A stretch of 64,000 nt of DNA from Nocardioides nitrophenolicus (lineage in GTDB: Bacteria > Actinomycetota > Actinomycetes > Propionibacteriales > Nocardioidaceae), in the NCBI RefSeq assembly GCF_016907515.1, contig NZ_JAFBBY010000001.1:3286001-3350000 (forward strand). Reading direction: 5' to 3'. The position numbers and the translations under genes were made by a program. Shown piece by piece: positions 3,663-46,200 of the stretch (the first letter of the stretch is position 1; each line of letters opens with the position of its first letter). The notes under the pieces were generated by a model. That model was not told the origin of the DNA, did not search any database, and worked only from the letters and a program-made list of their open reading frames with translations.

Positions 3663-5282
3663 TCAGCCGCAGGCGGCCGCCTGCGCGGCGGCTGCGGCGG
3701 CAGCGGCCTTCTTTGCCTTCCTCAGCTTCCTCTTCGCGGCCTTGACCGCCGCCGCGCGGTGCGCCTTCTTGGCCTTGGCCAGCCGCTTCTTGGCCTTGGC
3801 CACCTCGGCCTGGGCGGTGGTGGCGGCCGCGGTGGCGGGGGCGCACGCCGAGGGGGTCGGCGCACCTGACGGCGGAGTGGTGGGGGTGCCCGGGGTGCCC
3901 GGCGTGGTGGGCACATCGGCCAGGGACAGCGACCAGAGCTCCCGGCCGTGGCTGCCGTCGTCGGCGGTGAAGTACAGCCGGGTCGGCGTGCGCCCCAGGA
4001 CATGGGCCTGGGAGCTGTTGGGGTACTCCCGGCCGTAGCGGGGAGAGGTGCCGGGGTAGATGTCCTGGACCAGTGCCGTGCCGGCCGAGGTGCCGTCGCT
4101 GCGCCACAGCTCGTAGCCGTGGTCGTCGTCGTGGCCCGAGAAGTACAGGGCGTGCTCGGTGGCGATCAGGTCGCCGTACTCGTCGGCGATGTCGTCGACG
4201 GTGTCCGCGTCGGTCACCCGAATCGTGCCCTGCGCGGTGCCGTCGGAGGTCCACAGGGAGCCGAAGGCTTCGAAGTACAGGGCCTGGCCGAACGCGGTCA
4301 GGTTGTTCGGCCGGGTCTTGTTGGGCCCGTACATCGGGTCGCTGCCCGGCGCGAGGTCGACGACCATCCGGGTACCGGCGGGGGTGCCGTCGCTGCGCCA
4401 GAGCTCTTCACCGTTGGTGTCGTAGCCGCTGAAGAACAGGGTGTCGCCCACGGCGGCCAGCCGCCGGGCGTGGAAGAAGTCCTCCGGGGGATGGTCGACG
4501 ACCGGTCGGGTCCCCGCGGCGGTGCCGTCAGTCGCCCACAGCTCGGTCTGGTCGCCGTCGTCGGCGGCGAAGTAGAGCCGGTCGCCGAGCGCGGTGAAGC
4601 TGAACGGCGACGAGCTCTCCGGGTGGGTCGTGCCCTCGTAGGTCTCGGTCCGCGTATTCAGGTCCTTGAGCAGCGCGGTCCCGGCGGGCGTGCCGTCGCT
4701 GGACCACAGCTCGCTACCGTGTGCCTCGTCGTAGCCCTCGAAGTAGAGGCGGCCGCGCCAGGCATACATCTCCCCAACGCCGGCATCCGGGACGACGAGC
4801 GTGGTGCCCGCGGCGGTCCCGTCGGTCCGCCACAGCCCGTCCTCGGTGCCGGGTGCCGACCGGGCGGAGAAGTAGACGACGTCGCCGAAGGTGACGAACG
4901 CGCCGGGCCAGGATCCGTCGGCCCCGGGAGCGAGGTCCTTCACCATCCGGGTGCCCGCGGCCGTGCCGTCGGTGCGCCACAGCTCGCGACCGTGCACGCC
5001 GTCGTCGGCGGCGAAGAGGAGTATCTCCCCCAGGGCGGCGGAGGCGCTCATGTCCCAGTCCTCGAAGGAGTCCCCCGCACCGGGCGCGATGTCCGCGACC
5101 AGCACCGGATCGCCGTCGGCCGCGGTGGCCGGCGGGAGGACCAGCCCACCCCAGGCGAGGGCGGCCACCGTCGCCGCGGCGCCGGACCGGGCCGCCGCCT
5201 TGCGCAGGCGTCGGCGCCGGGCCTTCGCGATCGCTCGCCGTTCCCGGCTCCGGTCCTGTGCCGCACGCTGTCCCTTGCTCAC
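3663..5282 (-). CDS. ELWxxDGT-repeat secreted protein 1
   Basis: 539 residues, GTG start. An Arg/Lys-rich N-terminus (residues 1-30) precedes a hydrophobic signal segment ending near PATAADG. The body consists of about seven repeats of ~50 residues, each with the (E)LW-x-x-DGT-x-x-GT signature, of the ELWxxDGT repeat family, probably forming a beta-propeller-like surface domain. The last ~60 residues are a distinct module: a Cys in SACAPAT, two Lys/Ala-rich amphipathic helices, and a C-terminal AQAAACG with Cys at the second-last position. The same module closes the genes at 6413-8434 and 8518-9984. A TACGCT box 7 nt before the GTG suggests a leaderless mRNA. Function unknown; extracellular location inferred. 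Confidence 0.8.
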   Translation of the reverse strand: MSKGQRAAQDRSRERRAIAKARRRRLRKAAARSGAAATVAALAWGGLVLPPATAADGDPVLVADIAPGAGDSFEDWDMSASAALGEILLFAADDGVHGRELWRTDGTAAGTRMVKDLAPGADGSWPGAFVTFGDVVYFSARSAPGTEDGLWRTDGTAAGTTLVVPDAGVGEMYAWRGRLYFEGYDEAHGSELWSSDGTPAGTALLKDLNTRTETYEGTTHPESSSPFSFTALGDRLYFAADDGDQTELWATDGTAAGTRPVVDHPPEDFFHARRLAAVGDTLFFSGYDTNGEELWRSDGTPAGTRMVVDLAPGSDPMYGPNKTRPNNLTAFGQALYFEAFGSLWTSDGTAQGTIRVTDADTVDDIADEYGDLIATEHALYFSGHDDDHGYELWRSDGTSAGTALVQDIYPGTSPRYGREYPNSSQAHVLGRTPTRLYFTADDGSHGRELWSLSLADVPTTPGTPGTPTTPPSGAPTPSACAPATAAATTAQAEVAKAKKRLAKAKKAHRAAAVKAAKRKLRKAKKAAAAAAAAQAAACG

Positions 5283-5289
5283 GGGCGTG

Positions 5290-5339
5290 AGCGTAGGAAG
5301 GCCGCCGCCGTCGCCCCAGTCGTCCGATCGGTCGACAGC
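5290..5339 (-). promoter_or_regulatory. Leaderless promoter and conserved upstream element of ELWxxDGT gene 1
   Basis: On the minus strand the -10 box TACGCT occupies 5295-5290, 7 nt before the GTG at 5282. A 21-bp element at 5319-5339 (plus-strand reading begins GTCGTCCGATC and ends CGACAGC) matches 19 of 21 bases with the element at 8482-8502 upstream of ELWxxDGT gene 2. The gap from -10 to element is 23 nt here and 34 nt there, a difference of 11 bp, about one helical turn. This pattern suggests an activator site. Confidence 0.5.
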
Positions 5340-5346
5340 GCGCGCG

Positions 5347-6408
5347 TCACGAGGCCAGCCAGACCTCCTGGCCGTCCGGCCCGCTGAGCGCCGGGCTGCG
5401 GACGCCGGGCAGCACCTGCACGTCGAAGATCTCCTCGACCGCCGAGGTGAACTGCAGGGTCGCCACGGTCGTGCCGGTCGCGAGGTCGACGACCCCGATG
5501 CCGCACCTGAGCCGGTCGTGGTGCGCGGCGAGCGGCACCTCCCCGAACACGGCCGTCTCGCGGATCCGCGACAGGCCGACGAAGGCGAGTCCCGCGTGCA
5601 GGGCCAGCCCGCGCGTGTAGCCGGGCAGCGCCGCGACGGTCTCGCGGGCGCCGGAGGCGAGGTCGACGCGCTGGAGCTGGCCCAGGCCCGAGTTCAGCAC
5701 GTGGAGCCGGCCGTCGTACCAGCGCGGGGAGTGGGGCATCACCAGGCCGGACGTGATCACCTCCCCGCTCGGTACGTCGAGGACGACCCCGCTGCTCTTC
5801 GGCAGCCGCCGCCAGCCGTGGGCCTCGTCGGTGGCCGCCATCAGGGTCACCGCCGAGGCGCGGCCGTCGCGCACGGCGACGCCGTTGAGGTGGCAGCGGT
5901 CCTCGGCGGCGGGCCGGGTGATGAAGGGCGGTCGCCACAAGGGCCGGAAGTTGGCAAGGTCGTCGATCTCGGCGAGACAGGAGAAGGCGGTGTTGACCAC
6001 GATCTGTCGCGGCTCGCGTCCCGGCGGGTGCAGCCAGACGAGCTCGTGGGCCTGGATGTCGCCGGTGAAGGTCGACGTACGTGGCAGGTAGCAGGTGTCG
6101 TGGGTGCCGGCCGGCGGCAGCTCGGGCGCGATGCCGGGTGCGCTCCCCAGCAGCCAGACCTGGTCGCGGCTCGCCACCCGCAGCCCCGCGCCGTCGGGGT
6201 CGACCGCCACGCCCATCGGCCGGGGGAGGGCGCGGAAGGAGACGGTGAGGCGCCCGTCGGCCGCGCCGATCGCGGCGAGCTGGCCGGCCTGGTAGGTGCT
6301 GACCAGCAGCGAGCACCCGGCATTGGTCAGGACGTCGGGCAACCCGTCACTGTGGGTCCAGGAGACCCGGGACGGCTCCGCATCCGAGCCCGGAGGAGCG
6401 TCGGCCAC
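5347..6408 (-). CDS. TIGR03032/DUF4915-type protein
   Basis: 353 residues, GTG start 4 nt after the stop of the upstream ELWxxDGT gene (6413-8434), so both are probably on one transcript. No signal peptide is evident, in contrast to its neighbours. The sequence has recurring beta-strand segments (LLVSTYQAGQL near the start, RPMGVAVDPDG, then SPRWYDGRLHVLNSGLGQL) that match the TIGR03032 family, predicted to form a propeller-like fold and sometimes linked to tetratricopeptide or glycan-modifying proteins. The biochemical role is unknown. Its position inside a cluster of repeat-propeller surface proteins is suggestive of a shared process. Confidence 0.7.
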   Translation of the reverse strand: MADAPPGSDAEPSRVSWTHSDGLPDVLTNAGCSLLVSTYQAGQLAAIGAADGRLTVSFRALPRPMGVAVDPDGAGLRVASRDQVWLLGSAPGIAPELPPAGTHDTCYLPRTSTFTGDIQAHELVWLHPPGREPRQIVVNTAFSCLAEIDDLANFRPLWRPPFITRPAAEDRCHLNGVAVRDGRASAVTLMAATDEAHGWRRLPKSSGVVLDVPSGEVITSGLVMPHSPRWYDGRLHVLNSGLGQLQRVDLASGARETVAALPGYTRGLALHAGLAFVGLSRIRETAVFGEVPLAAHHDRLRCGIGVVDLATGTTVATLQFTSAVEEIFDVQVLPGVRSPALSGPDGQEVWLAS

Positions 6409-6412
6409 CGGC

Positions 6413-8434
6413 TCAGCCGCAGGCGGCGGCCTGGGCGGCCTTCGCCGGCGCGGCGGCGGCCTTCGCCTTCTTCAGCTTCTTCCGGGCCTTCTTGATCTTT
6501 GGCGCCGAGTGCGACCTCTTCGCCCTCGTCAGCCGCTTCTTGGCCTTGGTCACATCAGCGGCGGCGTCCGCTGCGGCGCTCGTGGCGGGAGCGCAGGCCG
6601 GGGCGGGAGTCGGGCTGGTCGGGCCGGCGGGAGGCGTCGGCACGGCGACGGTGAAGGTCCGCGCGGCGGGGGTGGGGTCGATGTTGCCGGAGGCATCGAC
6701 CGCGCGCACCTCGAAGGTGTGGGTGGTGCTGCCGAGCCCGGTGGCGGTGTGCGGCGAGGTGCAGGCAGCGAACAGCTGGTCGTCGATCCGGCACTGGAAG
6801 CGGGTGGTGTCGTCGCCGACGGCGGTGAACGCGAAGCTGACGCTGCTCGAGGTGCTCACCGAGCCCGCGGCCGGCCCCGCGGCGATGGCCGTGTCGGGCG
6901 GCGTCACGTCGCCCGGGGAGTCGGCGGTGCTGCCGAGGCGCCACAGCTCGCGGCCGCGCTGCCCGTCGTCGCCTCCGAAGTAGAGGTGACCGTCGTAGAC
7001 GGACGCAGCGACGCTCTCCTCCCAGCCGCCCGATCCGCCCGCGACTCCCGCGCTCCCCGGGTTCAGCTCGGCGACCAGCACCGTCCCGGCGGCCGTGCCG
7101 TCGGAGCGCCAGATCTCCCGGCCGCGGCTGCCGTCGTCGGCGGTGAGGTACAGCTCGGTGCCGAGCACGGCGAGGATCTCGGGCCCGTTGCTCCACGCGC
7201 CCGCCTCGTTGGGGTGGATGTCCTTGACCATGGCCGTACCGGCCTCGGTGCCGTCGCTGCGCCACAGCTCCCGGCCATGGGTCACGTCATCGGCGACGAA
7301 GTAGAGGACGTCCCCCATCACCCGGAACTGGCTGATGAACTTGCCGTCGGTGTCCTCCTCGTCGTCGGGGTCTCCCGCGTAGAGGTCCTTGACCCGCACC
7401 GTCCCCGGTGCGGTCCCATCGGTCTTCCACAGTTCGTTGCCGCCGTCCGGACCGTGGCCGGCGAAGAAGACGGTGTCGCCGAGGACTTTCGCGAAGGAGG
7501 CGCCGCCGTAGTCACGGGTCGCGGGCGCGGGCCCGACGTCGTCGACGGTCGTGCCGTCCGTCGTCCACAGCTCGGAGCCGGTGAACGCATAGAGGGTGTC
7601 ACCGACCGGAACGAGGTAGGGGTCGTCGGCGTAGTACGAGCCTCCGGGAAGCCCCGAGGGGACGGTGCCGGCCGCAGTGCCGTCGGACCGCCAGACCTCG
7701 CGCCGGCCGTCCGCGCGGTCGCTGATGTAGTAGACGTAGCCGCCGGCAGCACGGACCTGTCCGACCCCGGCCCAGGACTCGGTCGCGGGATTGACGTCCT
7801 TGACCAGGACGGTGCCGGACTCGGTCCCGTCGGTGCGCCACAGCTCCTCGCCATGGCCGCCGTCATCGGCTGTGAAATAGAGGGCCCCGCCCATCGGGGT
7901 GAACGAGCGAGGGTAGGACCCCGCGGGTCGGGTGCCGTCCTCGTCGGACGTGGTGCCGGCGCTGATGTCCTTGACCAGCACGGTCCCGGCCGCCGTCCCG
8001 TCGCTCGTCCACAGCTCGCGCCCGTGGCTGCCGTCGTCCGCCGAGAAGTAGAGCGCCCCGCCGAACACGGCGAGGTTCGTGGGCCACGACGAGATCGGGC
8101 AGGCGTAGCTGCGGTCCTCGTCGGTGCACGTCGTCGACCCGGGGGCGATGTCCTTGACCAGGGTGGTCCCGGCGCTCGTGCCGTCCGATCTCCAGAGCTC
8201 GGTGCCGGCGACATCGTCGAAAGCGGCGAAGTACATGCTGCCGTCGAAGGTCACGAACTCGTCAGGCCAGGAGCCGTCGGGGCCGGGCGCGATGTCCTTG
8301 ACCAGCTGTGGAACCAGGTCGTCGTCAGCCGCGCCCGCGGCGTACGGGCAGGTCAGTGCGGCCGCCGCCACGCTTGCGGCGACACCGATCCGGCTGAGTG
8401 CTCTGCGGGTACGTCGGCGCGCGGCTGGACTCAT
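6413..8434 (-). CDS. ELWxxDGT-repeat secreted protein 2 with Ig-like domain
   Basis: 673 residues. The ATG at 8434 was chosen because the longer open frame upstream reads out-of-frame through the neighbouring gene, and because a TAGCAT -10 box lies 7 nt before this ATG. The signal peptide has an RRRTRR cluster, a hydrophobic core and an AAGAA-type cleavage site. About eight ELWxxDGT repeats follow. A Ser/Thr-rich Ig-like domain (residues ~505-600, with CRIDDQLFAAC and VDASGN) is unique to this paralogue. The C-terminal ~60 residues are the shared module: CAPAT, Lys/Ala helices, and AQAAACG at the end. Function unknown; predicted extracellular. Confidence 0.8.
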   Translation of the reverse strand: MSPAARRRTRRALSRIGVAASVAAAALTCPYAAGAADDDLVPQLVKDIAPGPDGSWPDEFVTFDGSMYFAAFDDVAGTELWRSDGTSAGTTLVKDIAPGSTTCTDEDRSYACPISSWPTNLAVFGGALYFSADDGSHGRELWTSDGTAAGTVLVKDISAGTTSDEDGTRPAGSYPRSFTPMGGALYFTADDGGHGEELWRTDGTESGTVLVKDVNPATESWAGVGQVRAAGGYVYYISDRADGRREVWRSDGTAAGTVPSGLPGGSYYADDPYLVPVGDTLYAFTGSELWTTDGTTVDDVGPAPATRDYGGASFAKVLGDTVFFAGHGPDGGNELWKTDGTAPGTVRVKDLYAGDPDDEEDTDGKFISQFRVMGDVLYFVADDVTHGRELWRSDGTEAGTAMVKDIHPNEAGAWSNGPEILAVLGTELYLTADDGSRGREIWRSDGTAAGTVLVAELNPGSAGVAGGSGGWEESVAASVYDGHLYFGGDDGQRGRELWRLGSTADSPGDVTPPDTAIAAGPAAGSVSTSSSVSFAFTAVGDDTTRFQCRIDDQLFAACTSPHTATGLGSTTHTFEVRAVDASGNIDPTPAARTFTVAVPTPPAGPTSPTPAPACAPATSAAADAAADVTKAKKRLTRAKRSHSAPKIKKARKKLKKAKAAAAPAKAAQAAACG

Positions 8435-8441
8435 GGCCGCG

Positions 8442-8502
8442 ATGCTAGGAAGCGTCGTGCCTGACCGGCAGGGGCCGCGGTGTCGTCCGATCCGCCGACA
8501 GC
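8442..8502 (-). promoter_or_regulatory. Leaderless promoter and conserved upstream element of ELWxxDGT gene 2
   Basis: The -10 box TAGCAT (8447-8442, minus strand) sits 7 nt from the ATG at 8434. The 21-bp element at 8482-8502 differs from that at 5319-5339 only at its 12th and 14th positions. Both elements lie further upstream than a -35 box would, consistent with an activator binding site. Confidence 0.5.
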
Positions 8503-8517
8503 AGCTCACGCGCTCGC

Positions 8518-9984
8518 TCAGGCGCAGGCGGCTGCCTGGGCGGCTGCCGCGGTCGCGGCGGCCTTCTTGGCCTTCGCGAGCCTCTTCCTCGCCTTCTTCA
8601 CCTTGGCCGGGTTGCGGGTCTTCTTCGCCTTCTTCAGCTTCACCGTGGCGCTGGTGACCTGGGCGGCGGCGCCTGCCGCCGCGGTGGTGGCCGCGGTGCA
8701 GCCCGGCTTGGTCGTCGGTACGACGGCCGGGGGCGTGGACGGCTCGGCAACCCCCTGCACCCACAGCCCGGCGCCGGTGCCGTCGTCGCCGGTGAGGAAC
8801 AGGGTGCTGCCGGACGCGGCCAGGAAGCTGGGGGAGAGGTCCGCGACGCGGTGGGTGCCGGCGGCGGTGCCGTCGGTGGACCACAGCTGGCCCTTGTCGG
8901 CGGCCGCGAAGTAGAGGGTGCCGTCGACGACGGCGGTGTCGCTCCGCGAGACGCCGAAGAGCGCGCCCGGCCCGTCCGGCTCGAGGTCGGTGACCAGGCG
9001 GGTGCCGCCGGGGGTGCCGTCGGACCGCCACAGCTCGGTGCCGGTCTCGCCGTCGTCGGCCGCGAAGTAGAGGACGTGGTCGATGACGGCGAGCAGCCCG
9101 TCGACCAGCTCGATCGTGGGATCGCTGCCGACGGCCGGGTTCGTGACCCGGCTCGGCGTGCCGTCGACGATCTTCCACAGCTTGGGACCGGTGCCGTCGT
9201 CGGCGACGAAGTAGAGGGTGCTCCCATCAGCCACGAAACCGGCCGGTGTGGAGCTGTTGACGACCGGGCCGTCCTCCCCGGGAGTGGTGCCGGGATAGAG
9301 GTCGGCGACCTCCCCTGCGGAGCCGTCGGTGGCGTCGTAGGCCCAGAGCTCGTAGCCCGTGCCGCCCGGATCCGCCGCGAAGTAGAGCGTGGAGCCGACC
9401 GCCGCCATGGCGGCCGTGGGAGGCAGCCTGCTGCCGGTGTCGTTGCTGCCCCCGACCCGCACGGTCCCGGCCTCACTGCCGTCAGAGCGCCACAGCTCCC
9501 GACCGTGCACGCCGTCGTCGGCGGCGAAGTAGACCTCGCCGCCCAGCGCGGTCAGCCCGGCGCCCTCGCCCGACAACGCGTCCAGGTGGGGGCCGGCGAT
9601 GTCCTTGACCATCCGGGTGCCGCTCGGGGTCCCGTCCGAGGTCCACAGCTCGCGGCCATGGATGTCGTCGCTGGCGGTGAAGTAGAGCTGGCTCCCGACC
9701 ACGACCAGGTCGGTCGGCACGGAGCTGCCCGAGCCGGGATGGGCATCCTCGAGCAGCCGGGTGCCGCCCGACGTACCGTCCGAGGTCCACAGCTCCCGAC
9801 CGTGGATCCCGTCGTCGGCGGAGAAGTAGGCCCGGCCGCCCATCGTCACGGTCGCGGCCGGGTCGATGAAGGCGACGACCTGGTGCAGCTCGGTCCCGGC
9901 CGCGTGGGCGGGTGCCACCGTCAACCCGACCAGCCCCGGCATCCCGAGCGCGACGACCAGTGCCCCACAGCGTCCCCAGTTCAC
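8518..9984 (-). CDS. ELWxxDGT-repeat secreted protein 3
   Basis: 488 residues from the GTG at 9984. This start was preferred over the ATG at 10011 because a TACTGT -10 box (9998-9993, minus strand) lies 8 nt before the GTG, as in the two paralogues; the upstream ATG would overlap the divergent gene's start. A hydrophobic signal segment ends at APAHAAG. About seven repeats are present, two of them degenerate (YELWAYDATDG, PKLWKIVDGT). The C-terminal module is more diverged: GCTAAT, Lys/Ala helices, ending AQAAACA. Extracellular or surface-bound, function unknown. It may be the oldest of the three copies, given the degenerate repeats (inference). Confidence 0.78.
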   Translation of the reverse strand: MNWGRCGALVVALGMPGLVGLTVAPAHAAGTELHQVVAFIDPAATVTMGGRAYFSADDGIHGRELWTSDGTSGGTRLLEDAHPGSGSSVPTDLVVVGSQLYFTASDDIHGRELWTSDGTPSGTRMVKDIAGPHLDALSGEGAGLTALGGEVYFAADDGVHGRELWRSDGSEAGTVRVGGSNDTGSRLPPTAAMAAVGSTLYFAADPGGTGYELWAYDATDGSAGEVADLYPGTTPGEDGPVVNSSTPAGFVADGSTLYFVADDGTGPKLWKIVDGTPSRVTNPAVGSDPTIELVDGLLAVIDHVLYFAADDGETGTELWRSDGTPGGTRLVTDLEPDGPGALFGVSRSDTAVVDGTLYFAAADKGQLWSTDGTAAGTHRVADLSPSFLAASGSTLFLTGDDGTGAGLWVQGVAEPSTPPAVVPTTKPGCTAATTAAAGAAAQVTSATVKLKKAKKTRNPAKVKKARKRLAKAKKAAATAAAAQAAACA

Positions 9985-9992
9985 AAGGCGCA

Positions 9993-10002
9993 ACAGTAGG
10001 TT
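9993..10002. promoter_or_regulatory. Overlapping divergent leaderless promoters
   Basis: TACTGT on the minus strand (9998-9993) and TAGGTT on the plus strand (9997-10002) share two base pairs. Each lies 7-8 nt from its own start codon (GTG 9984, ATG 10010). RNA polymerase cannot occupy both at once, so the two genes probably compete for transcription. Confidence 0.5.
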
Positions 10003-10009
10003 GGACGGC

Positions 10010-10648
10010 ATGCGTCTCACCAAGTTCGGTCACTCCGCGGTCCGCCTCGAGCACGCCGGCACCACCCTCGTCCTCGATCCCGGCGCGTGGAGCCAGCGGG
10101 AGTCGGTCGAGGGCGTCGACGCGGTGCTGATCACCCACGAGCATCCCGACCACTACGCGCCGGACCACCTGCGGGCCACCGACGCGCCCATCTTCACCAT
10201 CGACGCGGTCGCCGCCCAGATCCGCGAGCACGCCCCCGACCTGCTGGAGCGGGTCACCGTGGTGGCGCCCGACCAGGCCTGGACCATCGGCGGGATCGAG
10301 GTGCGGGCGGTGGGCGAGCTGCACGCCGTGATCCACCCGGAGCTGCCGCGCTTCCACAACAGCGGCTACCTGCTCGCTGCGGGGGAGACCACCGTGTTCC
10401 ACCCGGGGGACGCGCTCCTCCCGCCGGGGGTCGCGGTCGACGTACTGCTGGCGCCGGTGTGCGCGCCGTGGATGCGGGTCTCCGAGGGCGTCGACTTCGC
10501 CCGCACGGTCGGCGCGGCCCGCAACGTCGCGATCCACGACCGGGTGTTCTCGCCCGAGGGCCTGGGCGTGGCCGACGCCCAGTTCGGCCGGTTCCTGGAG
10601 GCCGCCGGTCAGGAGTACGCCCGGCTGGCCGACGGCACCGACCTCTGA
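10010..10648 (+). CDS. MBL-fold metal-dependent hydrolase (UlaG-like)
   Basis: 212 residues. The ATG at 10010 begins the conserved N-terminus (LTKFGHSAVRLEH) and is preceded by a TAGGTT box at 7 nt. The metal-binding motif HEHPDH spans residues 43-48 (H43, H45, D47, H48), and further ligands are expected in HNSGYL and the GD of the VFHPGDALL segment. Length and pattern match the UlaG-like, L-ascorbate-6-phosphate-lactonase-related branch of the metallo-beta-lactamase superfamily. The substrate is unknown. Its likely role is cytoplasmic hydrolysis; no signal peptide is present. Confidence 0.8.
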   Translation: MRLTKFGHSAVRLEHAGTTLVLDPGAWSQRESVEGVDAVLITHEHPDHYAPDHLRATDAPIFTIDAVAAQIREHAPDLLERVTVVAPDQAWTIGGIEVRAVGELHAVIHPELPRFHNSGYLLAAGETTVFHPGDALLPPGVAVDVLLAPVCAPWMRVSEGVDFARTVGAARNVAIHDRVFSPEGLGVADAQFGRFLEAAGQEYARLADGTDL

Positions 10649-42010: not shown

Positions 42011-43207
42011 GTGAGCGCGGGCACGATCGGCATCGTCGGCGGCGGCATCCTGGGCCTGGCGGTGGGCCGGGAGCTGACCCGCCGCCGCCCGGGCGTGCGG
42101 GTCGTCGTCCTCGAGAAGGAGGACCGGCTCGCCGCGCACCAGACCGGGCACAACTCGGGGGTGGTGCACGCCGGCATCTACTACCGGCCGGGCAGCCTCA
42201 AGGCCGAGCTGTGCACCCGCGGACGCGCGCTGCTGCGCGACTACTGCGCCGAGCACGCGATCGCGTACGACGAGTGCGGCAAGCTCGTGGTCGCGGTCGA
42301 CCCGGACGAGCTGCCGCGCTTCGAGGCGCTGGCCCGCACGGCGCGGGACAACGGCGTCCCCGGCCTGCGCCGCCTCGACGGGGCGGCGCTGCGGGAGGTG
42401 GAGCCGCACGCCGCGGGGCTGGTCGCGCTGCACTCGCCGCGCACCGCGATCACCGACTACGTCGCCGTCGCGGAGGCGCTCGCCCGGGAGATCGTGGCGG
42501 CCGGCGGGTCGGTGCGGCTCGGCGCCGAGGTCACCGACGTGGCGCGGGTGCCGGGCGGGGTGTCGGTCAGGGCGGGGGAGGACGCGCACCTGGTGGACCG
42601 GCTGGTGGTGTGCGGCGGGCTGCAGTCCGACCGGCTGGGTCGGCTGGCGGGAGGTCCGGCGACCCCGCGGATCGTGCCCTTCCGAGGCGAGTACATGCAG
42701 GTGTCGCCGGCCAAGGCCGACCTGGTCCGCGGCATGGTCTATCCGGTGCCGGACCCGGCCTACCCCTTCCTCGGCGTGCACTTCACCCGCCGGGTCGGCG
42801 GTGGCCTCGAGGTCGGCCCGAATGCCTTCCTCGCGTTCAGCCGCGACGACTACGGCCGTGCCGCACTCTCGCCGCGCGACCTCGCCGACACGCTGGGCTA
42901 CGCCGGCTTCTGGCGCTTCGCGCGCCGCCACTGGCGCACCGGGATCGGCGAGCTGCGCGGCGTGCTGTCGCGCACGGCGTACCTGCGCGGCGCCCAGCGC
43001 TATGTCCCCGCCATCGGGCCCGGCGACGTCACCCGCGCCGGGCTCGGGCTGCGCGCCCAGGCGGTCGAGGCGGACGGGTCGCTGGTCGACGACTTCGTGA
43101 TCCAGCACGGCGACGGGGTGACGGTCGTCCGGAACGCGCCGTCACCCGCCGCGACCTCCAGCCTGGCGATCGCCGAGCACGTCGTTCAATCGATCAGCTT
43201 GGCGTAG
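42011..43207 (+). CDS. lhgO: L-2-hydroxyglutarate oxidase
   Basis: 398 residues, GTG start. It is an FAD-dependent DAO-family enzyme oxidising L-2-hydroxyglutarate to 2-oxoglutarate. The dinucleotide motif IGIVGGGILGLAVGREL begins at residue ~6. LhgO hallmarks follow: TGHNSGVVHAGIYYRPGS (~45-62), PFRGEYMQV (~223) and GVHFTRRVGGGLEVGPNA in part (~257). Family-normal length. The 3' end overlaps the convergent surface-protein gene by 22 nt. Its product feeds 2-oxoglutarate, the likely substrate of KorAB. Confidence 0.88.
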   Translation: MSAGTIGIVGGGILGLAVGRELTRRRPGVRVVVLEKEDRLAAHQTGHNSGVVHAGIYYRPGSLKAELCTRGRALLRDYCAEHAIAYDECGKLVVAVDPDELPRFEALARTARDNGVPGLRRLDGAALREVEPHAAGLVALHSPRTAITDYVAVAEALAREIVAAGGSVRLGAEVTDVARVPGGVSVRAGEDAHLVDRLVVCGGLQSDRLGRLAGGPATPRIVPFRGEYMQVSPAKADLVRGMVYPVPDPAYPFLGVHFTRRVGGGLEVGPNAFLAFSRDDYGRAALSPRDLADTLGYAGFWRFARRHWRTGIGELRGVLSRTAYLRGAQRYVPAIGPGDVTRAGLGLRAQAVEADGSLVDDFVIQHGDGVTVVRNAPSPAATSSLAIAEHVVQSISLA

Positions 43208-46200
43208 GCCAGGCTGCGGTACCTGTACCGGCCGCTCCCGTCGAGCGCCCACCGGTTGCACGTGGTCAGCACCAGCTGCGAGGGACCGAGATTGCTCTGC
43301 AGCTCGGCCATCCGCTTCTCGGAGAGGTTCAGCGGGGCCCGGGCGATCGCCCGGGTCACCCGGTAGGTCAGCACCTTGCCGGAGGCCAGCTCGACCTGCA
43401 CCGTCGCGCTCTTGCGCAGTCTCGGCAGCTTGTTGCCGGCGGCCCACCCGCTGCGGTTGGAGTGCAGTGCCACCAGCACCGAGCCGGGGCCGCCCGGCTC
43501 GCCGTCGCCCTGCCAGAAGTAGGCCTGGCCGAGGGCGGTCCGGTTCAGCGGGACCCGCTGCGTGGCCGTCGCCCGCAGCTCGGCCGACACCCCGGCCGAC
43601 GGCACCAGCAGCCGCCCGCCGCCCCAGGCGGCCTGCCGCACGCCGGTGGTCGGCGCGACCGCCTTGACCTTGCAGCCGCCCTTCACCTTCGCCTTCGCCA
43701 GGACCGCGCCGCCGTCCATCACCACGCGCACCACCTTGCCGATCCGCAGGCCGGCGAGATGGAGGTCGCGGGTCAGGCCCGGGGCGACCTCCGCCGTGGC
43801 CCGCACCTTCTTGCCGACGCGGACCCGGACCGTGCCCGCGATGGTGGAGGAGATCGGGTTGGTCGCCGTGACCAGCGCCTCGCCGTACCGCTTGGTCACG
43901 CAGGCGGTCTTGACCGAGGCCTGCATCGACAGCTGGACGCCGCCGACCTGCCCCGGCGTGCAGACCCGGACCTGCTCGTTCGCCGACTGCTGGGTCTCCA
44001 CGATGGTCGCGGTGTTGGTCCAGGTCTGACACTGGCCGGGCGTGGCCGACAGGGGCAGCGTGTAGTCGAACGCGGTCGGCTGGCCCTGGGCGTTCCAGTT
44101 CGCCGTCCCGAGCGTCGCGGGAGCGCCGACGGTGCCGGCCTTGTCGTCGGTGACGGTGACCGTCCGGTTCGTCTCAGCGTCCAGCACGAAGGCGACCGGC
44201 ACCTGGGTCACGACCGGCGAGCCGGCCGCCCAGGCGACCGACACGGTGGCCGTCCCGTCGACGTAGCCGCTGTCGGGAAGGTCGCAGGCGATGGGTACGT
44301 CGACCGTCTGCCCGGCTGGCACGGTCACCGGCGAGCCGGTCGCGACGCAGGTGGCCGGGCCGCCGACGTCGAGGGTGACCGTGATGCCGGCCGAGAGGTC
44401 CTTGAAGTCGTTCGGGTTGGTCACCTGCACCGAGCCCGCCGCCGTCCAGCCGCTGTCGGTGGCCGCACCCGGGACCGCCGAGACGACGTAGCGCGCGGTG
44501 GCCTTGCCGTCGGGGCCGGCCTGGAGCTGGGTCTGGTCGGCCTCCTTGGTGATCGACCAGGCGTAGGACCGGTCGAAGTCGCCGTCGACCGCGGCCGCCG
44601 CGGCGGGCGTCCTCACCACGCACAGCTCGACCGACTCGTCGGCGGACTGGTCGGTCTGCACGATGACGGCGGTGTTGTCGTAGGTCGTGCAGGTCCCGGC
44701 GACGCCGGACTTGGTGACCGTGTAGGTGTAGGAGAACGGCCCGTTGTCCCAGGTGCTGGTGCCGAGCGGGTGGCTGGCTCCCGGCTCGGTCTTGTCGTCG
44801 TTGACGTCGACCGACTTGTCGACCTCGTCGTCGACCTCGAGGCTCAGCGCCGCGCTGCCGGTGGCCGTCGCGGGCTCGTCGTCCGGGTCGGTCCAGCTCG
44901 CGGTGGCGGTGTTGGTGCCCGTGTACGACGCGGGCTTCGCCTGGAAGGTGCAGGCGTAGTCGAGCTCCTTCGTCGCGCCCGGGGCGAGCTCGACGTCGGT
45001 GCCGCCGGTGACCGTGCAGACACCGCCGGTCACGCCCGACAGGTCGTCGGTGACGTCGGCGACGATGCCGCCGTCGGCGTAGGTGTTCGGGTTGTGCACG
45101 GTGATCACGCCGTGCGCCTCCCAGCCGGAGTCGGTGAACCCGTCCTTGGCGACGTCGACGGTGTAGTGGAAGTCGTGGCTCTGCCCGTCGCGGATCTCCG
45201 CCGTGGTCTGGTCGGCCGCCTTGGCGATCGTCCAGTGGTAGGTGCGGTCGAAGGTGCCCTCGGCGGTCTTGGTGACGGTGAGCGGCGCCTCCCGGCACAC
45301 CTCCACCTGCGCGCTCGCGGTCTGGGCGGTCTCGGTGATCGTGGCGGTGTTGTCGTAGGTCTCGCAGACGCCGAGGGTGCCCGCGGGAGCCGTCCAGTCG
45401 TACTCGAAGGTGGTCGCCTGGGTGCCGTCACCCCAGTCGGCGGTGCCGAGCGTGGTGCTCGGGGCCTTGGGGTCGGTCACCGTCACCGTCTTGTCGACGT
45501 CGGTGACCTTGGTGAAGCTCACCGGCACCTGGGTCGCGACGGTCTTGCCGCCGAAGGCCGCCGTCGCGGTGTTCGTACCGCTCGGGTGGGTGGTCACGTC
45601 GCCGGTGCAGGTGTACGGGACGACGGCCGTGTCGCCGATCGCCACGACGACCGTGGGATCGCCCGTGATCGCGCAGGTCCAGCCGGGGACCCCCGACACG
45701 TCGGACACGGTCGTGGTCAGCGCCGTCGTGGTCGACGGGTTGGTCACCGAGATCGTCCCCGACCAGGACGCCGTCCCGTCGGTGAACCCGTCGGGCGTGG
45801 CGGTCACGCCGTAGTGGAAGGTCGCGCTGCCGTCGGGCCCGATCTCGACGGAGTCCTCGTCGACGGTCTTGGCGAGCTTCCACTTGTAGGTGCGGCCGTA
45901 CTCCGCCTTCACGGACTTGGTGATGCCCGGACGGCACACCTCGGTGGTCGCCGTGCTGGACTGGCCGGTGCCGGTGATCGACACCTCGTTGTCGTACGTC
46001 GTGCACGCACCTGCCGCGAGGCCGGTGTCGAGCTGCACGGAGGCGTCGATGGTGACGGTGTGCTGGGCGTTGGCGTTCCAGACGTCGACCCAGTTGAGGG
46101 TGGCCGGGGTGAGGGTCACTCCGGCCGGGCTGCCGCCGGCCTCGGTGATCTCGTCGACCAGGTCGATGTCCTTGTGGGCCGGCGTCTCGGTGGTCTCGCT

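What the first reader, a model, noticed from the sequence alone, without database searches (positions are those of the whole stretch)
3663..9984. Shared Cys-capped Lys/Ala helical module at the C-terminus of three ELWxxDGT proteins
All three proteins end with the same ~60-residue layout: a Cys (CAPAT or CTAAT), a helix, a Lys-rich helix (KAKKRL type), a second Lys-rich helix (RKLKKAK type) and a terminal AQAAAC(G/A) with Cys at the second-last position. Two terminal Cys joined by a disulfide would lock a basic helical hairpin. This looks like a surface-retention or wall-polymer-binding module distinct from LPxTG. The three propeller parts differ more than the tails do.
Basis: partly seen in the sequence, partly recalled or inferred. 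Interest (0 to 1): 0.75.

Follow-up and report, generated by a model that had tools for sequence, protein, structure and literature searches.

The report
Heptad-laddered, Cys-paired basic helical hairpin tail
Many exported proteins of the soil bacterium Nocardioides begin or end with the same small part, a positively charged two-helix hairpin with a cysteine at each end, whose length mostly changes by whole helical repeats on both sides together; it looks like an undescribed portable tag, perhaps for holding proteins at the cell surface.

Summary
The three ELWxxDGT proteins share a gap-free 60-residue tail (35-39 of 60 identical; shuffles average 15-18), and a fourth copy lies just outside the window. 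The tail is one case of a portable module on exported actinobacterial proteins, nearly always at a protein end: of 129 Cys-paired modules, 58 are C-terminal and 69 follow a signal-like stretch. Cargo includes propellers, trypsin-like proteases, alkaline phosphatase and choice-of-anchor J proteins. AlphaFold predicts two helices, with the Cys at the helix ends.

The new finding is a ruler: Cys-Cys spacing clusters at 44, 58, 72, 86 and 100 (14n+2; 111 of 129), so both arms gain whole heptads together. A 33-column model without Cys or arms gave 41 hits, all on the ladder (24 non-seeds); so are 9 of 10 modules from another class. Basic residues sit near the loop; added heptads are neutral. This supports an antiparallel, disulfide-clasped coiled-coil hairpin with a basic tip. 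The disulfide itself is inferred.

A distant tie to half of DUF1090 is possible. Surface retention by polyanion binding is plausible but untested.

The parts
3663..5282 (-). ELWxxDGT protein A (539 aa), N-terminal basic stretch plus signal peptide, propeller body, P/T-rich linker, hairpin tail
   Evidence: TIGR04534 342 bits
3666..3845 (-). hairpin module of A: 60 residues, Cys480 to Cys538, spacing 58
5347..6408 (-). TIGR03032 / DUF4915 gene between B and A in the same run of genes; neighbour, not part of the module
   Evidence: also near the fourth copy, in G034 and G145 and in 8 of 80 other ELWxxDGT loci
6413..8434 (-). ELWxxDGT protein B (673 aa, P0002)
   Evidence: TIGR04534 406 bits; AlphaFold model
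6416..6595 (-). hairpin module of B: Cys614 to Cys672, spacing 58; predicted helices 614-640 and 644-672
8518..10023 (-). ELWxxDGT protein C (501 aa from a TTG start)
   Evidence: TIGR04534 310 bits
8521..8700 (-). hairpin module of C: Cys442 to Cys500, spacing 58

Best explanation
The tail is a portable terminal module of exported proteins: an antiparallel two-helix coiled coil of the large-residue/Ala-alternating (Alacoil-like) type, its two ends joined at the base by a disulfide between the first and last Cys, with a strongly basic tip around the loop. Because both chain ends meet at the clasp, it can be attached with the same outward-pointing tip after a signal peptide or at the C-terminus. 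Its length is mostly set in whole heptads added to both arms at once, and the added heptads are neutral, so the tip keeps its charge while the stalk varies. Most likely function (inferred): the basic tip binds a polyanion of the envelope (wall glycopolymer, membrane phospholipid or extracellular DNA) and holds the cargo, a propeller here, at the cell surface without sortase. Shown by computation: module, heptad ladder, terminal placement, export of most carriers, predicted fold. Inferred: disulfide, binding partner, retention.
For: Ladder: a 33-column model with no Cys and no arms (A8) gave 41 hits in 25 of 147 Nocardioides genomes. All 41 have a flanking Cys pair, at 44 (3), 58 (8), 59 (2), 71 (7), 72 (4), 73 (2), 85 (4), 86 (6), 99 (1), 100 (4); period-14 resultant R=0.965. 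17 of the 41 are seeds of the model; the 24 non-seeds are all on the ladder (one of them, in G075, had not been met before). In the wider set 111 of 129 modules and 59 of 74 clusters lie within 1 of 14n+2; 14 gives the highest R among the periods tried (0.72 by clusters). Ten modules from an order of another class, none of them a seed: 9 of 10 on the ladder. Arms: for the 53 of 74 clusters whose loop could be placed, N and C arm agree within 2 residues in 46, against 14 by permutation. Seven choice-of-anchor J carriers that I scanned have spacings 57, 57, 71, 72, 85, 100, 101. On modules with matched arms (100 rows, 47 clusters), large apolar residues fill 80% of position 0 mod 7 from Cys1 and mostly Ala position 3 mod 7; K/R fraction 0.50-0.58 at 4-12 residues from the loop, at most 0.10 beyond 28; D/E at most 0.05. 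Fold: helices with Cys at their outer ends. Placement: 58 C-terminal (57 within 5 residues of the end), 69 after a signal-like stretch, 2 elsewhere, of 129.
Against: Nothing here shows binding or surface location. 15 of 74 clusters and 18 of 129 modules are off the ladder; leaving out every cluster that holds a model seed gives 33 of 48 on it, R=0.59. In the own genome 6 of 8 Cys-paired modules are on it; the two off are L085 (54) and L089 (70). 17 of 146 hit frames have no Cys pair within 35 residues of the match: three DUF349 proteins, long coiled coils, and C-terminal relatives without Cys, some with signal-like starts (L075, L078, L088, L099), so the clasp is not indispensable. Members were collected with models built from members and are related, so p-values overstate independence (the loci of the 41 give about 11-18 clusters). 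The heptad and charge profiles were made on modules chosen for matched arms. The register of the second arm is weaker. The structure tool gives no coordinates, so the S-S distance was not measured, and the alignments were shallow (7 and 3 rows). 141 of 215 Nocardioides genomes had no match at E<=0.001, so it is dispensable for the genus. The own genome has 8 sortase-family matches, so another anchoring route exists.
Confidence: 0.5

Rival explanations
1. Structural or oligomerisation module: the clasped hairpin only caps, spaces or assembles exported proteins (hairpins packing side by side, as in coiled-coil adaptors), and its charge is for solubility; no surface ligand.
For: The heptad ladder is a length ruler, which suits a spacer or packing element; among the solved structures that Foldseek lists are coiled-coil hairpins of AcrA, MexA and KpsE (TM by query length about 0.7-0.84 for most of those chains, all E-values near 1 or above).
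Against: Terminal placement on many unrelated cargos including enzymes and a charge confined to the tip while the added heptads are neutral fit an outward-facing binding tip better.
Confidence: 0.27
2. Secretion or sorting signal: a terminal hairpin recognised by a dedicated export, processing or attachment system, possibly through the terminal Cys.
For: Position at a protein end, varied cargo, presence on choice-of-anchor J proteins and one choice-of-anchor I-like protein, where sorting signals usually sit (recalled).
Against: Most carriers already have ordinary signal-like starts; about half of the modules are N-terminal; no partner gene was searched for.
Confidence: 0.1
3. Low-complexity artefact: GC-rich Ala/Lys codon runs and 21-bp slippage make similar tails with no selected structure.
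For: Tails are Ala/Lys-rich and the window is 65-75% GC in 2-kb steps; spacings inside homologous clusters change by about multiples of 14.
Against: Identity is about twice that of shuffles; arm lengths match each other; D/E are nearly absent although their codons can be GC-rich; Lys is 1.7% in the bodies of the C-terminal carriers; 41 of 41 core hits have Cys on the ladder.
Confidence: 0.03
4. A far-diverged relative of the second half of DUF1090 (as some database names suggest), sharing ancestry with that family's Cys-helix-loop-helix part. This says what it descends from, not what it does, so it can hold together with the others.
For: 8 of 29 module rows hit PF06476 at E<=0.01; L055, P0016 and P0018 score 26.6, 26.8 and 26.1 bits against a cut-off of 24.4. 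The match of L055 starts with its first Cys at profile position 55, which is where YqjC has its second Cys (C61; YqjC 10-116 matches 4-110); from there to the loop is about 35 residues, as in the 72-spacing modules (my count).
Against: No match to profile positions 1-54; YqjC has no Cys after the second hairpin, so the module's Cys pair is not there; its own pair is C24-C61, spacing 37; profile comparison with YqjC gives 1.3% probability; P0002 (17.7), L063 and L065 are under the cut-off.
Confidence: 0.15

Closest known systems
ELWxxDGT repeat proteins (TIGR04534)
   Same: The bodies of the three window proteins are members; Foldseek pairs the model with large propeller-containing chains, at low TM.
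   Different: None of the best 80 other ELWxxDGT loci, seven of them in Nocardioides, shows the hairpin tail (C-terminus seen in 69).
DUF1090 (PF06476, E. coli YqjC)
   Same: Small protein with a signal-like start; its second half (from C61: helix, loop, helix) matches the module from the first Cys onward, and several carriers pass the Pfam cut-off.
   Different: First half not matched; no Cys at the end of the second hairpin; profile comparison with YqjC 1.3%; YqjC is one small protein, not a terminal module on larger cargo.
C-terminal sorting tails: LPXTG/sortase, and the PEP-CTERM and T9SS tails (the last two recalled)
   Same: Extreme terminal position, varied exported cargo, presence on choice-of-anchor J proteins.
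   Different: No LPXTG followed by a membrane helix seen; a predicted folded hairpin rather than a short signal; also used N-terminally.
Alacoil and alpha-hairpin coiled coils (AcrA/MexA type; Alacoil definition recalled)
   Same: Antiparallel hairpin; large-residue/Ala heptad alternation; Foldseek lists AcrA/MexA chains at TM about 0.8, E above 1.
   Different: Terminal, with Cys at both ends, basic tip, quantised length; best PDB profile match is a designed protein, E 0.0017.
CHCH and alpha-hairpinin folds (recalled)
   Same: Helical hairpins held by disulfides.
   Different: Those have two disulfides with fixed CX9C or CX3C motifs; here one Cys pair at a variable, heptad-stepped distance. 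Not tested here.

Membership tests
ELWxxDGT repeat protein (TIGR04534), body only | Repeat-model score above curated cut-off of 65 bits | tested here: met
   342, 406, 310 bits
DUF1090 (PF06476) | Gathering score of 24.4 bits | tested here: inconclusive
   L055 26.6, P0009 26.7, P0016 26.8, P0018 26.1 pass; window B 17.7, L063 23.0, L065 22.5 fail; 8 of 29 module rows at E<=0.01
DUF1090 (PF06476) | Match over the whole profile (1-110) | tested here: not met
   Matches begin at profile position 55 or later in every case seen
DUF1090 (PF06476) | Profile-level homology to YqjC | tested here: not met
   hhalign probability 1.3% against the single sequence
LPXTG sortase substrate | LPXTG-like motif followed by membrane helix and basic tail at the C-terminus | tested here: not met
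   2 of 127 motif-like matches, neither with a C-terminal membrane helix; 1 of 127 with a membrane helix in the last 60 residues
Antiparallel coiled-coil (Alacoil-like) hairpin | Heptads alternating large apolar and Ala, two helices joined by a short loop | tested here: met
   Register of arm 1 sharp, arm 2 weaker; predicted helices 6-32 and 36-64
Disulfide-clasped hairpin | Covalent Cys1-Cys2 bond | not testable with these tools
   Only inferred from ladder, matched arms and predicted fold
Surface-retention module | Binds an envelope component and holds cargo at the cell | not testable with these tools
   No binding data
Portable module of exported proteins | Same module on unrelated exported cargo, not on cytosolic proteins | tested here: met
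   Cargo families; signal-like starts (14 of 129 not shown to be exported); the four signal-less hits scanned are Cys-less DUF349

The most novel reading that the evidence does not exclude
A sortase-independent surface-display system in Nocardioides and relatives: a disulfide-clasped coiled-coil hairpin, usable at either end of a protein, whose constant basic tip docks on an anionic envelope polymer and whose stalk length is set in whole heptads, so that reach is adjustable per cargo.
Probability: 0.35. Interest if true: 0.78.

Novelty: new variant of a known kind. Interest (0 to 1): 0.62.

Why it matters
The libraries scanned here either did not name the module or labelled it DUF1090. It links dozens of exported actinobacterial proteins, many without a recognised domain, and makes a testable prediction of where they sit. 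The heptad ladder with matched arms is natural evidence, from sequence alone, for an antiparallel clasp, and the module is a candidate length-adjustable display tag to test in harmless soil bacteria.

Tried and rejected
Full DUF1090 membership: not met, though a distant tie to its second half stays open. LPXTG or membrane anchor: rejected. Low-complexity chance: disfavoured. Laying the whole genome for an HMM scan was not possible, so searches went through the genome search. The first arm-symmetry run mixed mis-placed loops with good ones (Pearson 0.03, Spearman 0.49, median difference 1.0 over 68); I then required a core alignment covering the loop (61 rows, Spearman 0.77; 53 of 74 clusters, Spearman 0.70). 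A named-genome scan with the tail alone gave 592 pattern matches but no confirmed relative, perhaps because of low complexity. A profile search of the PDB gave 29 matches at E<=1, the best a designed protein at 0.0017. Paper searches gave listings with abstract starts only, or nothing; no paper was opened, and none listed describes this module.

Rows dropped: hits sharing an identical 30-residue core (167 to 146); 17 without a Cys pair within 35 residues; placement counted only for the 129 with a pair; the 2 mid-protein ones were left out of the 127; for heptad and charge profiles only 100 rows and 47 clusters with matched arms were used, which selects for symmetry. Loci fetched were a part of the matches listed: I took most of those and a choice of those.
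Full report
WHAT IS THERE. Three minus-strand genes in window 3663-10023 encode ELWxxDGT repeat proteins (TIGR04534, 310-406 bits against a cut-off of 65); a TIGR03032/DUF4915 gene lies between B and A. The genome is held as a single 5.8-Mb contig. The genus is Nocardioides by inference: a protein named from Nocardioides daeguensis (P0006) has the same tail as same-genus locus L009, and N. carbamazepini (L197), reached by name, gave matches at the same coordinates as same-genus G014. The 60-residue tails align without gaps with 29 invariant columns, at 35-39 of 60 identities against averages of 15-18 in shuffles, while the propeller parts are 42-46% identical. A fourth ELWxxDGT protein with the same tail ends at C1:3282217, again followed by a TIGR03032 gene.

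BEYOND THE THREE. With profile A4 at E<=0.001, 74 of 215 genomes of the genus match, 8 of 24 of a sister genus and 10 of 121 in one order of another class. At E<=1e-4, 16 of 149 in the family match and 3 of 396 across the phylum: the own genome, one real match in another class (G222) and one DUF349 false positive (G252). Some DUF349 and long coiled-coil false positives also occur in the other counts, mostly near the thresholds. Of 49 genomes reached by name, 2 match, both titled Nocardioides; 40 titled as other phyla gave none. Only candidates of a loose first look are scored, so absences are not proof.

WHERE IT SITS. From fetched loci (a part of the listed matches), 146 frames with different cores match; 129 have a Cys on each side of the loop. 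Of these 58 are C-terminal, 57 of them with the second Cys 0-5 residues from the end; 69 have a hydrophobic signal-like stretch in the 70 residues before the first Cys; 2 are elsewhere. Of the 58, 46 have a signal-peptide-like start, 8 are cut on the N side by the fetched stretch, and 4 have none by this crude rule. Of 20 C-terminal carriers scanned with Pfam at E<=0.001, matches include two trypsin-like proteases, a subtilase, alkaline phosphatase, a phytase-like/choice-of-anchor I protein, an M23 match just under its cut-off, a phosphate-binding-like protein, carboxypeptidase-regulatory repeats, Ig-like repeats and a PD40 propeller; five (L069, L091, L084, L062, L093) had no Pfam match. NCBIfam added choice-of-anchor J in L069, L087, L279, L102, L218, P0014 and P0017. 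The linker before the module is Pro-rich (16% against 6.6% in the bodies). LPXTG-like motifs occur in 2 of 127 and a membrane helix in the last 60 residues in 1 of 127, though the own genome has 8 sortase-family matches.

THE RULER. Cys-Cys spacing is not continuous. Of the 129 modules 111 lie within one residue of 14n+2; by 55%-identity clusters 59 of 74; by placement 51 of 58 C-terminal, 58 of 69 N-terminal and 2 of 2 others. Among the periods tried, 14 has the largest resultant (0.72 by clusters), followed by 13 (0.69) and 7 (0.68). Because those search models contained Cys and arms, I built a 33-column core model without either (A8) and searched 147 genomes of the genus: 41 hits in 25 genomes, and 41 of 41 have a flanking Cys pair at 44, 58-59, 71-73, 85-86 or 99-100 (R=0.965). 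Seventeen of the 41 are the seeds, chosen when their Cys were known to me; the other 24 are all on the ladder, though all but one of these had already been met with the earlier models. The loci of the 41 give roughly 11-18 clusters, in which 11 of 11 and 17 of 18 representatives are on the ladder; rows were drawn by locus, and the one exception is a neighbouring protein that is not among the 41. In an order of another class, with no seed, 9 of 10 Cys-paired modules are on the ladder. Sixteen proteins returned by the two protein searches (two of them the window's own) have spacings of 57, 58, 71 or 72, all on the ladder. Where the loop could be placed (53 of 74 clusters), the two arms agree within two residues in 46, against 14 expected by permutation. 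Seven choice-of-anchor J carriers have spacings of 57, 57, 71, 72, 85, 100 and 101. Against it: 18 of 129 are off the ladder, including L085 (54) and L089 (70) of the own genome, and after removal of all seed-bearing clusters 33 of 48 remain on it, R=0.59.

ANATOMY. On modules with matched arms (100 rows, 47 clusters): counted from the first Cys, large apolar residues fill 80% of position 0 mod 7, and mostly Ala fills position 3 mod 7; the second arm shows a similar alternation less sharply. K/R make up 50-58% of positions 4-12 from the loop and at most 10% beyond 28; D/E stay at or below 5%. Median net charge of the 129 is +19. Extra heptads are therefore neutral stalk, and the basic tip is constant. 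AlphaFold gives helices 614-640 and 644-672 in P0002, with 10-residue block pLDDT of 79-92 from 611 to 670 and 70 for the last three residues; the whole model has mean pLDDT 66.7. The tail alone gives helices 6-32 and 36-64, mean pLDDT 83.9, pTM 0.63. The Cys are the outer ends of the helices in both (614/672; 6/64). Coordinates are not given by the tool, so the S-S distance was not measured. Alignments were shallow (7 and 3 rows). The body matches large propeller-containing chains, at low TM; the hairpin alone matches coiled-coil hairpins such as AcrA at TM about 0.8 but with no significant E-value.

HOW IT PROBABLY WORKS. A clasped antiparallel hairpin brings both chain ends together, so the module can hang from either terminus with its basic tip outward; this would account for the two placements (inference). 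The tip would bind an anionic partner: wall glycopolymer, lipid head groups or extracellular DNA. The varied cargo, which includes choice-of-anchor domains that elsewhere precede recognised sorting tails (recalled), and the lack of other anchors favour surface retention. I put about 0.85 on the structural account (portable, clasped, laddered hairpin), about 0.45 on retention by polyanion binding, and 0.5 on the statement as a whole.

WHAT IS KNOWN. In my scans no Pfam or NCBIfam model covers the whole module. Partial DUF1090 matches have given one carrier that name in public records (P0009), and several carriers pass the Pfam cut-off. The match starts at profile position 55. In YqjC that position is its second Cys, followed after about 35 residues by a loop, the same geometry as the first arm of the 72-spacing modules; but YqjC lacks the closing Cys, its first half is not matched, and comparison of the module profile with YqjC fails (1.3%). 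A distant tie is possible; membership is not met. Ten literature searches in the held library listed no description; I saw listings and abstract starts only.

Noticed in passing
window 5347-6408; L007 11113-12162; other ELWxxDGT loci: A TIGR03032/DUF4915 gene lies beside ELWxxDGT genes in both own loci, in G034 and G145, and within the fetched flanks of 8 of 80 other ELWxxDGT loci, four of them titled Planctomycetes (many flanks are cut, so this is a lower bound). The label gave no paper.
   Followed up: partly
L075, L078, L088, L099, L268, L270, L271: C-terminal Lys/Ala hairpins without Cys (the last three end in Ala-Ala-Ala-Ser); the first four have signal-like starts. A Cys-less form seems to exist.
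   Followed up: no
L008 2123-2947 and 3052-3696; L059; L053: Small module-first proteins occur as neighbouring paralogues and often end in Leu/Gly/Pro-rich stretches; three scanned had no Pfam match.
   Followed up: no
L217-L226, L286-L296 (an order of another class of the phylum): The module recurs in 10 of 121 genomes at E<=0.001, including a C-terminal tail on a trypsin-like protease, and 9 of 10 Cys pairs keep the ladder.
   Followed up: partly
E. coli YqjC (L346 5970-6338) and PF06476: DUF1090 carries a short Cys-hairpin-Cys (C24-C61, spacing 37) followed by a second hairpin whose first arm, from C61 to the loop, is about 35 residues, like the first arm of the 72-spacing modules.
   Followed up: partly
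window 43195-43608: Sortase-family (PF04203) match inside an 1801-residue open frame (G000:C1:3329195-3329608).
   Followed up: no
N-termini of A (window 5282 downward), L007, L054, L259, P0003, P0004, P0006, P0007: Several tail-bearing ELWxxDGT-type proteins share a long basic stretch ending in RRRRLR or RRRRIR before the hydrophobic part of the signal peptide; B and C of the window do not.
   Followed up: no
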